Virus record (IMG/VR): IMGVR_UViG_3300034072_001153
Coordinates: 1-38,281 of that record
Reading direction: 5' to 3' (one strand)
From: a virus
DNA: 38,281 nucleotides
Shown here in pieces: positions 10,170 to 12,001 of the stretch; position 1 is the stretch's first letter; each line of letters begins with the position of its first letter. Position numbers and translations under genes: made by a program. The notes under the pieces were generated by a model. The model saw nothing but the letters and a program-made list of their open reading frames with translations, was not told the DNA's origin and made no database searches.

Positions 10170-10424
10170 TCATACCGCAGACCCTTGCAGCGCAGCTGCT
10201 GGGGCAGGCGCGACGCGGGCAGGACGGTTGGTCAGCACGCCATCCTTCATGCCCAGCAGCACGGCAATGTTGTGGCTCTCGCCCCGGAAGCACTTTTTGC
10301 GACCGGCGAGAACCTCACGGACAAGGCTGTCGTTCTTTTTGTTTTCGCGTGCCCACTGGGCAATCGTGATGCCTTGGTACTCAAGCCAGGCGCGGGCCTC
10401 GGCTGGGGTGCGTAGCTTCTTCAT
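10170..10424 (-). CDS. BcepMu gp16-like DNA-binding protein
   Basis: 84 aa. MKKLRTPAEARAWLEYQGITIAQWARENKKNDSLVREVLAGRKKCFRGESHNIAVLLGMKDG matches the small phage-associated family named after BcepMu gp16: an Xre-like helix-turn-helix with the invariant ending GRxK..RG..HxIAVxLGxK. It is the first leftward gene facing the repressor, the position of gp16 in BcepMu, and is the probable counterpart of Cro/Ner. No strong Shine-Dalgarno is visible before the ATG. The tail (VAPAPAAALQGSAV) is disordered. Confidence 0.8.
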   Translation of the reverse strand: MKKLRTPAEARAWLEYQGITIAQWARENKKNDSLVREVLAGRKKCFRGESHNIAVLLGMKDGVLTNRPARVAPAPAAALQGSAV

Positions 10425-10543: not shown

Positions 10544-10573
10544 ATTATGCGGCACAAACGTTCCGCATTGCAA
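10544..10573 (-). promoter_or_regulatory. Candidate leftward early promoter
   Basis: Read leftward, TTGCAA (10573-10568) and CATAAT (10549-10544) are separated by 18 bp. The left operator arm (10551-10565) fills the spacer, so repressor binding would block it. It points towards the gp16-like gene and the early operon. Confidence 0.55.
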
Positions 10574-10596
10574 TAGCTGATCGGAACATTTGTGCC
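10551..10596. promoter_or_regulatory. Two-site operator of the Xre repressor
   Basis: GGCACAAACGTTCCG (10551-10565) and CGGAACATTTGTGCC (10582-10596) are inverted copies that match at 14 of 15 positions. Each arm is itself an imperfect dyad (GGCAC-4-GTTCC), and their centres are 32 bp apart, about three helical turns. The right arm covers the GTG start of the repressor gene and the left arm the spacer of the leftward promoter, which predicts negative autoregulation and control of the early operon together. Confidence 0.78.
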
Positions 10597-11077
10597 TGAT
10601 ATCGCGGATCGTCTGAAAGCAGCCCGGGAAGGCTTAGGGCTGAGTCAGCAGGCCATGGCTGAGCACTGCGGTGTGACATCGCGCTCTCAACGCAATTACG
10701 AGACGGGCGAGCGTCAGCCAGATGCTCTGTACTTGGCGCGTTTGGTCGAACTCGGGGTCGACGTGATGTACGTGCTGACGGGTGAGCCCACGGGCGCGCA
10801 GCCAGCAACCGACGCCAGCGAGCAACTGCTGCTGGAGAACTACCGCCGCTGCGCGCTGCCGGCCAAACAGAATCTGTTGCAGAACTCTGTGCTGCTGGCC
10901 GCAGGCATGGGAGCCGCCCAGCCACCAGCCGCAGCCAAATCCAAGGCGGCCGCAACCGCATCTGGAATGCACATGTCCAACGTGGGCGACGGCAACGTGC
11001 AAGTGGGGTCTGTCAGCGGTGGCTTGAATGTGAGTGCGCCGCGCAAGCGCTCAACGGCCAAACCAAAAGAGAAGTAG
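10592..11077 (+). CDS. Xre-family phage repressor with a GNVQVG-motif tail
   Basis: 161 aa from a GTG start. Residues 4-60 (IADRLKAAREGLGLSQQAMAEHCGVTSRSQRNYETGERQPDALYLARLVELGVD) form an Xre/CI-type HTH. There is no S24/LexA peptidase domain, so RecA-driven self-cleavage is not expected. Residues 68-100 are helical; then an Ala/Lys-rich linker leads to VGDGNVQVGSVSGGLNV near residue 135, a motif repeated in the next gene, and a basic tail. Position at the divide between leftward early genes and rightward genes, plus the operator over its own start, make it the lysogeny repressor. No clear Shine-Dalgarno is seen. Confidence 0.82.
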   Translation: MPDIADRLKAAREGLGLSQQAMAEHCGVTSRSQRNYETGERQPDALYLARLVELGVDVMYVLTGEPTGAQPATDASEQLLLENYRRCALPAKQNLLQNSVLLAAGMGAAQPPAAAKSKAAATASGMHMSNVGDGNVQVGSVSGGLNVSAPRKRSTAKPKEK

Positions 11078-11101
11078 GGTCAATTCAAAAGGGGAGACAG
11101 G

Positions 11102-11557
11102 GTGAAGTTGAGGGAGTTACTGCAATGGCTTCTCAAGCTATTGCCAAAGCAAAAAATGCAGGACGTGGGACATGGCAATGTCCAGGTGGGGCGAGTCGAT
11201 GGTGATCTGTGCAGCACGCAGAACTCCAACAACCAGACCGTCTACAACACCTATTTCGTGATGGCGTCGCAGACCTCCACAAAGGTGGTGCGGCCCATGG
11301 ACAACGCCACAACATCCGGCACACCGACCTCATTCACCAGGCCCAGCGAAGCCACCGATTACCAGCGTGATCTGCTGCGCTTCATGGCCCAAAGCCCATT
11401 TCACGAAAGCCGCGCCGAGTACTTCATGCAGCGAGAATTCGGCACGGTCTGGGTCAAGAGCCTGGACGAGCTGCAGTGCCGTCGCACCACCCGATATGTG
11501 GAGACCTGCATCCGCAACGAGCAGGACAAAATGGCCGTGGAAAATAACTTGCCTTGA
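11102..11557 (+). CDS. Unknown protein with GNVQVG motif, 151 aa
   Basis: GTG start at 11102 with GGGGAG six bases upstream. The N-terminus MKLRELLQWLLKLLPKQK is a basic amphipathic helix, possibly membrane associating. Residues 21-34 (GHGNVQVGRVDGDL) repeat the motif in the tail of the repressor, followed by an Asn/Thr/Ser-rich stretch (NSNNQTVYNTYFVMASQ). The C-terminal half (DYQRDLLRFMAQSPFHESRAEYFMQREFG...VETCIRNEQDKM) is helical and soluble. It lies 24 bp behind the repressor gene and is probably expressed with it in the lysogen. The family is not recognised. Confidence 0.7.
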   Translation: MKLRELLQWLLKLLPKQKMQDVGHGNVQVGRVDGDLCSTQNSNNQTVYNTYFVMASQTSTKVVRPMDNATTSGTPTSFTRPSEATDYQRDLLRFMAQSPFHESRAEYFMQREFGTVWVKSLDELQCRRTTRYVETCIRNEQDKMAVENNLP

Positions 11558-11569
11558 AGGGACCGCCTT

Positions 11570-12001
11570 ATGAGTACACCCACAGACCAGCTTTGGATGT
11601 CCGTTGAACAGGAGGCGGACAACGCACAACAGCGCAATCCTGGCCTGTGGGCACGCTGCTTTGCCCAGGCCGAGGGCGACGCATCGAAAGCCAAAGCGCT
11701 GTATATGACGGAGCGTGTGCGTCAGCTCGGAAGTGCAGAAGGCCCTCAACCGCCCCCCAGCAGCAATGAGATGGGCTGGGCTGCCAAGTTGGGCTTGATC
11801 TGCATGGTGCTGGTGATCGGTTTTTTTGCGCTGGGCGCCCTGCAACCCGATGACGGGAGCGCAGACAAACGCGCGGCCATTGACACCTGCTGGAACGAGC
11901 AGAAGAACCCTGCACTAGACCCCGCTACCCAGCGCTTTGTGGCCAGCACCTGCCAAACGCTGGAACGTGAATTCAAACAGCAGTTTGGACAGCAGCCTTA
12001 G
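11570..12001 (+). CDS. Single-pass membrane protein, 143 aa, unknown
   Basis: A soluble helical N-terminal part (1-60, with QQRNPGLWARCFAQAEGDASKAKALYMTERVRQL) is followed by a Pro/Ser linker, one membrane segment at about 70-91 (WAAKLGLICMVLVIGFFALGAL) and a C-terminal domain with two Cys residues (DTCWNEQKNP, ASTCQTLE). This arrangement fits an inner-membrane protein with one pass; the two cysteines could form a disulphide if that side is periplasmic. It starts 12 bp behind the preceding gene (AAGGGA before the ATG), so the repressor, the GNVQVG protein and this one look like a single rightward unit. Superinfection exclusion or defence is possible but unproven. Confidence 0.68.
   Translation: MSTPTDQLWMSVEQEADNAQQRNPGLWARCFAQAEGDASKAKALYMTERVRQLGSAEGPQPPPSSNEMGWAAKLGLICMVLVIGFFALGALQPDDGSADKRAAIDTCWNEQKNPALDPATQRFVASTCQTLEREFKQQFGQQP

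What the first reader, a model, noticed from the sequence alone, without database searches (positions are those of the whole stretch)
10900..11230. RHIM-like GNVQVG motif shared by the repressor tail and the neighbouring unknown protein
The repressor C-terminus has GDGNVQVGSVSGGL and the next protein has GHGNVQVGRVDGDL near its N-terminus: ten of fourteen residues are identical, while the codons differ, so it is kept at protein level. The core V-Q-V-G in a G/N-rich context has the form of the RHIM tetrad ([IV]-Q-[IVL]-G) and of amyloid-type homotypic signalling motifs, which are typically shared by the products of adjacent genes. The repressor lacks a self-cleaving domain, so another way of inactivation is needed. 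A third gene encoding a membrane protein follows. The set could be an unusual lysogeny switch or a defence module in which the two proteins join through this motif.
Basis: partly seen in the sequence, partly recalled or inferred. Interest (0 to 1): 0.72.

Follow-up and report, generated by a model that had tools for sequence, protein, structure and literature searches.

The report
Phage repressor and neighbour share motif
In this bacterial virus, and in many unrelated ones, the protein that keeps the virus dormant carries at its tail a short sticky motif that is matched, type for type, at the front of the protein made from the next gene; this suggests that the two proteins join through it, in the manner of the prion-like signalling motifs of immune systems.

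Summary
The window is a Mu-like (B3-like) temperate phage. Its repressor (10592-11077) ends in MSNVGDGNVQVGSVSGGL and the next protein (11102-11557) has MQDVGHGNVQVGRVDGDL near its N-terminus. All 16 further loci of this class in which both genes could be read carry the motif in both proteins, including a Q-to-N core change made in both (L103). Twenty-residue tails are identical on strongly diverged DNA-binding domains despite 5-13 synonymous codon changes. Over 95 loci (62 distinct tails), repressor tails match their own downstream protein far better than those of other loci (36.7 vs 25.0, SD 0.78). Other repressors, including those of phages B3, KS5 and AP3, carry quite different glycine/asparagine-rich tails, and their neighbour has that same type. 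Most phages with plain tails or an S24 domain lack it. Both stretches are predicted disordered, outside the folded domains. Partners of the other classes mostly carry transmembrane segments. I conclude that the motif physically couples repressor and neighbour in a lysogeny-operon module. It works like a RHIM/BASS amyloid motif pair, but amyloid formation is untested and no curated model matches. Whether it controls the repressor or excludes other phages is open. I found no earlier report.

The parts
10592..11077 (+). Lysogeny repressor: N-terminal HTH (HTH_31/HTH_3), helices to about residue 106, then a disordered tail; no S24 peptidase domain
   Evidence: Pfam HTH_31 E 3.4e-8, phrog_8 transcriptional regulator E 2e-15; AF2 model with tail 107-161 disordered
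10973..11026 (+). RHIM-like motif in the repressor tail, MSNVGDGNVQVGSVSGGL (residues 128-145); core VQVG at 10997-11008
   Evidence: M, N, G, G, V, Q, G, G invariant in 8 loci; synonymous divergence
11090..11096 (+). Shine-Dalgarno-like AGGGGAG ahead of the GTG start of the partner gene; similar purine-rich sites in L002, L004, L005, L006, L013
   Evidence: sequence
11102..11557 (+). Partner protein (151 aa), the gene directly downstream of the repressor
   Evidence: translation; homologues in L001, L002, L004-L006, L013, L090, L093, L094, L100-L107
11108..11146 (+). N-terminal amphipathic helix of the partner (about residues 3-15, LRELLQWLLKLLP); possible membrane-surface anchor
   Evidence: AF2 helix 3-11; 18-residue hydrophobic moment 0.33-0.58 over 13 homologues; membrane binding is inferred
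11156..11209 (+). RHIM-like motif of the partner, MQDVGHGNVQVGRVDGDL (residues 19-36); core VQVG at 11180-11191
   Evidence: G23 and G30 invariant and Q28 and G34 nearly invariant over 16 homologues, although the stretch is predicted disordered
11345..11545 (+). C-terminal helical domain of the partner (residues 82-148)
   Evidence: AF2 pLDDT about 95; only weak fold matches: BRD3 ET domain Z 5.4, AcrIE3 Z 5.3, Red-beta C-terminal domain Z 5.0
10546..10601 (.). Inverted repeat (20-nt arms, 85%) between repressor and Ner-like gene, probable operator
   Evidence: overlaps a minus-strand promoter-like site; inference
10170..10424 (-). Divergent HTH gene (phrog_925; B3-like ner/BcepMu gp16 position), first gene of the transposase-side operon
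11570..12001 (+). Third gene of the run, one predicted TM segment (67-94); accessory, not a constant part
   Evidence: homologue in L093, unrelated genes at this place in L004, L005, L100

Best explanation
The two stretches are one homotypic interaction motif, kept in pairs. The repressor's disordered tail and the neighbour's disordered N-terminal stretch co-assemble through it, most likely by beta-strand (beta-arch) stacking as RHIM, PP and BASS3 motifs do. The genes form a lysogeny-operon module, so both proteins are made in the lysogen. The neighbour is attached to, or sits in, the membrane: by an amphipathic helix in the window family and by one or two TM segments in the other classes. My committed mechanism is that the neighbour docks the non-cleavable repressor at the membrane in higher-order assemblies and thereby sets the amount of free, DNA-binding repressor, giving a switch that does not need RecA-driven cleavage. 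Shown: pairing, co-variation, purifying selection, predicted disorder, constant gene order. Inferred: physical contact, stacking fold, membrane docking, effect on induction.
For: Motif in both proteins in all 17 loci of the class in which both genes could be read. Within-locus similarity exceeds between-locus similarity (41.7 vs 31.3; 9-locus subset 45.4 vs 30.7; no permutation reached it). L103 has N in place of Q in both proteins; L102 has the identical NSGAGSVQIG in both. Identical tails sit on diverged HTHs with 9-13 synonymous changes (L005 against L006/L013), and near-identical tails on HTH domains of different type (L105/L106). Own-neighbour matching over 62 tails and at least eight motif types, with the neighbour being the next gene, including B3, Ps59, KS5, AP3 and Carl1. 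Eight named phages without such a tail lack the matching neighbour. Both motifs are disordered in AF2 models. TM segments in 10 of 11 computed partners of other classes. In the related phage Fc02 the gene directly downstream of the repressor is on the lysogen transcript (PMC9936078).
Against: No structure, interaction or amyloid data. No match to any Pfam model, RHIM included, or to PDB chains. The amphipathic helix is only moderate (mean hydrophobicity about 0). In the Comamonas-type sub-group the own partner is not the best match among relatives, so pairing specificity is at clade level there. Exceptions exist: L043/L055 have a G-rich tail without a matching next gene, and in L046/L060/L061/L067 the matching protein lies 0.6-2 kb further on. 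The permutation test does not remove shared ancestry.
Confidence: 0.42

Rival explanations
1. Superinfection exclusion or abortive infection. The neighbour is a membrane-acting effector held inactive in the lysogen; repressor molecules clustered on incoming operators present many tails, template the neighbour through the motif and trigger membrane damage, as fungal NLRs do with HET-S/HELL effectors.
For: Place behind the repressor in a lysogen-expressed operon is that of lambda rexAB (PMC11077077). Membrane segments or amphipathic N-terminal helix in partners. In known pairs such motifs join receptor and membrane-killing effector (PMC7885112; PMC12881547). The accessory, patchy distribution fits.
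Against: No PADLOC match for partners. Both proteins are made all the time in the lysogen, so toxicity would need a further brake. No effector domain recognised.
Confidence: 0.3
2. Non-amyloid oligomerisation. The motif forms a defined small beta-structure that makes repressor multimers for cooperative operator binding; the neighbour copy is a co-subunit or competitor. No signalling and no membrane role.
For: The motif is short and G-rich; these repressors lack the C-terminal domain that gives lambda CI its cooperativity. RexA is reported to form complexes with CI assemblies (PMC11077077).
Against: At least eight unrelated motif types serve the same place, and type-matching tracks the pair, which is how BASS families behave. 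The AF2 models show no fold for it.
Confidence: 0.17
3. Counter-defence decoy. The phage proteins carry host-like amyloid signalling motifs to jam or hijack RHIM/BASS-based host immunity, as viral RHIM proteins do in animals.
For: Core resembles the bacterial BASS3 motif (GVQVGDGNVQ in the Frankia peptide, PMC8086366 Table 2).
Against: Motifs match the phage's own neighbour and are produced from the lysogeny operon. No host BASS3 pair was sought in these hosts.
Confidence: 0.06
4. By-product of duplication: the tail arose by copying the neighbour's 5' end (or the reverse) and has no joint function.
For: 30 of 45 bases agree in the window.
Against: Tails are kept at 20/20 residues with 9-13 synonymous changes (L005 against L006 and L013). 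Base identity within loci is often low (23/42 in L102) although the residues match. Pairs recur in many motif types.
Confidence: 0.03

Closest known systems
BASS motifs (bacterial amyloid signalling sequences; BASS3 is the RHIM-like one) shared by adjacent Bell and NLR genes
   Same: Short G/N/Q-rich motif at a disordered protein end, shared by products of adjacent genes, many sequence types that match within a pair; BASS3 core GVQVG; one motif at the C-terminus of one partner and one at the N-terminus of the other
   Different: Partners here are a phage repressor and a small membrane-linked protein, not a Bell-domain effector and an NLR; no amyloid assay done; no profile match
Metazoan RHIM (RIPK1/RIPK3/ZBP1/TRIF) and fungal PP motif
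   Same: Tetrad [IV]-Q-[IVLA]-G after a G, G/N-rich flanks
   Different: No match to Pfam models with the bare motif; flanks after the core read x-[VI]-x-G-G; different host proteins
lambda cI-rexA-rexB immunity operon
   Same: Gene directly behind the repressor, expressed in the lysogen, product(s) reported to bind the repressor, membrane component, effects on both switch and exclusion
   Different: No sequence similarity found; no shared repressor/partner motif is described for CI and Rex in what I read
Small antirepressor modules (Qtip/VP882 and TF-smORF modules)
   Same: A small protein encoded by the phage acts on its own repressor, giving an induction route that needs no DNA damage (PMC10432266)
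   Different: There the small protein gene is switched on by a divergent transcription factor; here the partner is co-oriented and directly behind the repressor and shares its tail motif
ORF6C-type anti-repressor domain (PF10552)
   Same: KS5 gp12 has a weak match (E 0.046) and weak anti-repressor PHROG matches
   Different: Below the cut-off; the window partner itself has no match

Membership tests
RHIM (PF12721) | Core tetrad [IV]-Q-[IVL]-G in a G/N-rich context | tested here: met
   VQVG in both window proteins; [VI]-Q-[VI]-G in 16 of 17 repressors, partners also [VLIF]-Q-[VAIM]-G
RHIM (PF12721) | Match to a curated RHIM (or PP/Ses_B) profile | tested here: inconclusive
   No Pfam match up to E 10 with bare motifs and up to E 1 with full proteins; HMMER has little power on 20-residue motifs
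RHIM (PF12721) | Amyloid assembly through the tetrad | not testable with these tools
   Needs ThT, diffraction, mutants
BASS / amyloid signalling motif pairs | Same motif in products of adjacent genes, more than chance | tested here: met
BASS / amyloid signalling motif pairs | Motif in a disordered terminal region outside the folded domains | tested here: met
   AF2 models
BASS / amyloid signalling motif pairs | Association with Bell-domain effector and NLR | tested here: not met
   HTH repressor and small helical or TM proteins instead
BASS / amyloid signalling motif pairs | Fibre formation and templating | not testable with these tools
   Experiment needed
lambda Rex-type exclusion module | Genes directly behind the repressor in the lysogeny operon | tested here: met
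   Gene order in window and homologous loci; Fc02 RNA-seq for the same position
lambda Rex-type exclusion module | Homology to RexA or RexB | tested here: not met
   No Pfam, PHROG or PADLOC match of the partner
Phage anti-repressors with ORF6C domain | Match to PF10552 above its cut-off | tested here: not met
   14.1 bits for KS5 gp12 against a cut-off of 22; none for the window partner

The most novel reading that the evidence does not exclude
A widespread, unreported class of lysogeny module: temperate-phage repressors without a cleavage domain end in amyloid-signalling motifs of many diversified types, each matched by the membrane-linked protein of the next gene, so that the dormancy decision or exclusion is transmitted by prion-like templating between a DNA-binding protein and the membrane.
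Probability: 0.4. Interest if true: 0.92.

Novelty: new variant of a known kind. Interest (0 to 1): 0.78.

Why it matters
How repressors without an SOS-cleavable domain are switched off is open for many Mu-like and P2-like phages. A matched motif in the next gene gives a direct, testable answer, with historic phage B3 and phages KS5 and AP3 among the carriers. It would extend amyloid-type homotypic signalling from immune receptors to a viral developmental switch, and would offer many independently diversified motif pairs for the study of specificity in such assemblies.

Tried and rejected
Stop-codon read-through fusion of the two proteins: the frames agree in the window, L001 and L004, but not in L005/L006, so it is not a conserved feature. 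A fused alignment for AF2 was built and dropped, because MAFFT aligned partner motifs onto repressor motifs. Identifying the partner's C-terminal domain by fold: only weak, unrelated matches; a family not listed there is not excluded. Profile of 27 motif segments against the PDB: nothing. PADLOC matches of the repressor are HTH only. Relatives of the window partner in annotated phages, or of its N-terminal 54 residues in plasmids: none. Third gene as a constant part: rejected, it is replaced in relatives. Literature: no paper joining amyloid signalling motifs with phage repressors was found in the held library; this is not proof of absence, as most subscription papers are not held.

Full report
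What is there. The window is a Mu-like temperate phage with the gene order of Pseudomonas phage B3: transposase on the minus strand (phrog_310, E 1e-81), a divergent small HTH gene in the ner position, then the repressor on the plus strand, followed two genes later by holin and endolysin (B3 map). The repressor (10592-11077) has an N-terminal HTH and no peptidase domain. The next gene (11102-11557, GTG start, good ribosome-binding site) encodes a 151-residue protein without any Pfam or PHROG match. A third gene (11570-12001) encodes a single-TM protein.

Check of the observation. MSNVGDGNVQVGSVSGGL in the repressor tail and MQDVGHGNVQVGRVDGDL in the neighbour are exactly as described, 10 of 14 residues identical. 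The codon argument is weak in the window alone, since 6 of 11 identical residues share the codon. It becomes strong across phages: L005, L006 and L013 share 20 of 20 tail residues with 5 to 13 synonymous differences per pair of loci, on strongly diverged DNA-binding domains.

Homologues. Relatives of the neighbour were found in viral contigs and in genomes: 10 of 401 genomes sampled from the family of the Comamonas carrier, only the two already known among 399 genomes drawn from the order. In each case where both genes could be read (17 loci with the window, counting L008), the motif is in both proteins. Examples, repressor then neighbour: L002 GSVQIGHVGGDY and GSIQIGSVGGNF; L102 NSGAGSVQIGTM and NSGAGSVQIGKA; L103 NAVNIGSIG and NAVNIGQMR, where the central Q is N in both; L008 GAGAVQVGSAGG and GAGAVQIGKAGG. 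Within-locus similarity of the 17-residue stretch is 41.7 against 31.3 between loci; in a 9-locus subset 45.4 against 30.7; no permutation reached either value. L105 and L106 have near-identical tails and neighbours but HTH domains of different type. Over 16 neighbours the two G and, nearly, the Q and last G of the motif are conserved as strictly as the core of the C-terminal domain.

A general rule. The search with the repressor brought in 69 loci of Mu-like and P2-like phages. Several carry other G/N-rich tails, and local alignment showed that the protein of the next gene begins with the same type: VSGSGHRIAGRDF with VEGSNNRVAGRDY (L020), QVFNGPVENIAGRDV with QQFSGPVQHVAGRDV (L069), HHGDIGQNIYGNI with FSGDVGQNVFGNI (L034), VRGDMVQRDKIV with VHGDYVERDKFV (L014), and others. 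Named phages follow the rule: B3 (ORF18 and ORF20), Ps59, KS5 (gp11 and gp12), AP3 and Carl1, and Escherichia phage 520873, whose partner ORF is unannotated and perhaps frameshifted. Fc22, U3, JBD67, Mana, Milagro, KL3 and D14A have plain tails and no such neighbour; Acica has a full-length repressor with a peptidase-type C-terminal half and none either. In a uniform test over 95 loci (62 distinct tails) the mean score of a tail against its own downstream proteins was 36.7, against 25.0 (SD 0.78) for swapped loci; 15 tails had their own neighbour as the best of 62, about one being expected. Exceptions: L043/L055 have a G-rich tail without a match in the next gene, and in L046, L060, L061 and L067 the matching protein lies further downstream.

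Structure. AlphaFold2 on both families puts the motifs in low-confidence, disordered stretches outside the folded parts: repressor tail 107-161, partner residues 22-79. The partner has a short N-terminal helix and a confident helical domain (82-148) with only weak structural matches. In the other classes 10 of 11 partners computed have one or two predicted TM segments, and the eleventh (L034) is just below the threshold by eye. In the window family an amphipathic, tryptophan-bearing helix precedes the motif. Membrane association is therefore a plausible common trait, though unproven for the window.

Mechanism. Shown: pairing, type-matching, co-variation, purifying selection, predicted disorder, constant order next to the repressor. 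From the literature: in the related phage Fc02 the gene directly downstream of the repressor is on the lysogen transcript (PMC9936078); in lambda the genes behind cI encode proteins that bind CI in a two-hybrid assay and act on both the switch and exclusion (PMC11077077); RHIM, PP and BASS3 motifs assemble as amyloids and pass a signal between products of adjacent genes (PMC7885112; PMC8086366; PMC12881547). Inferred: the motif joins repressor and neighbour, and the neighbour holds repressor at the membrane or in assemblies, setting the free repressor level. The main rival, with similar parts, is a membrane effector for exclusion. I put motif-mediated physical coupling of the two proteins at about 0.75, the repressor-control reading at 0.42 and the exclusion reading at 0.3.

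Known or new. By form the window motif is RHIM- or BASS3-like: the BASS3 peptide of Frankia reads GVQVGDGNVQ, and the archaeal BASS3-like peptide reads VIGQQINVAGD, like another of the phage tail types. Membership is not claimed: no curated profile matches, and the defining partners (Bell domain, NLR) are absent. I found no report that links such motifs to phage repressors, with the limit that most subscription papers are not held.

Noticed in passing
window 10546-10601: Inverted repeat TATGCGGCACAAACGTTCCG / CGGAACATTTGTGCCTGATA (20-nt arms) reaching into the repressor start; likely operator. The repressor ORFs of L008, L100 and L105 begin with the same encoded GIFVP, so the site may be kept there too.
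   Followed up: partly
L102:1357-1872: The partner carries two motif copies in a row (NSGAGSVQIGKASKPV and PMQVGQVHGTV), recalling the two repeats of HET-s.
   Followed up: no
L080:2903-3076 (Escherichia phage 520873): Unannotated ORF directly behind the repressor carries the matching motif (SNGSNNRVAGRDFHE against SGGNNRIAGRDYNE); the rest of the gene looks frameshifted.
   Followed up: partly
L085:3005-3760 (Burkholderia phage AP3, AP3_0038): Annotated as alpha/beta hydrolase, but it is a relative of KS5 gp12 (membrane protein, phrog_6521), with the motif at the N-terminus and one TM segment; the annotation looks wrong.
   Followed up: partly
L055:2926-3426 and L043: Repressor tail LEIGQLIHGPVRQDGLTINVG of the same general make-up but with no matching neighbour; an exception to the rule.
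   Followed up: partly
L046:4307-4477, L060:4930-5097, L061:4054-4497, L067:5081-5224: In these phages the protein matching the tail (GDAGQVVAGNAV type) lies 0.6-2 kb downstream of the repressor instead of directly behind it.
   Followed up: partly
window 11156-11260 and homologues: After the motif the partner has a second conserved stretch (QTVYN in the window, QHFY in relatives; Y48 invariant in 16), perhaps a second beta-strand of the same assembly.
   Followed up: no
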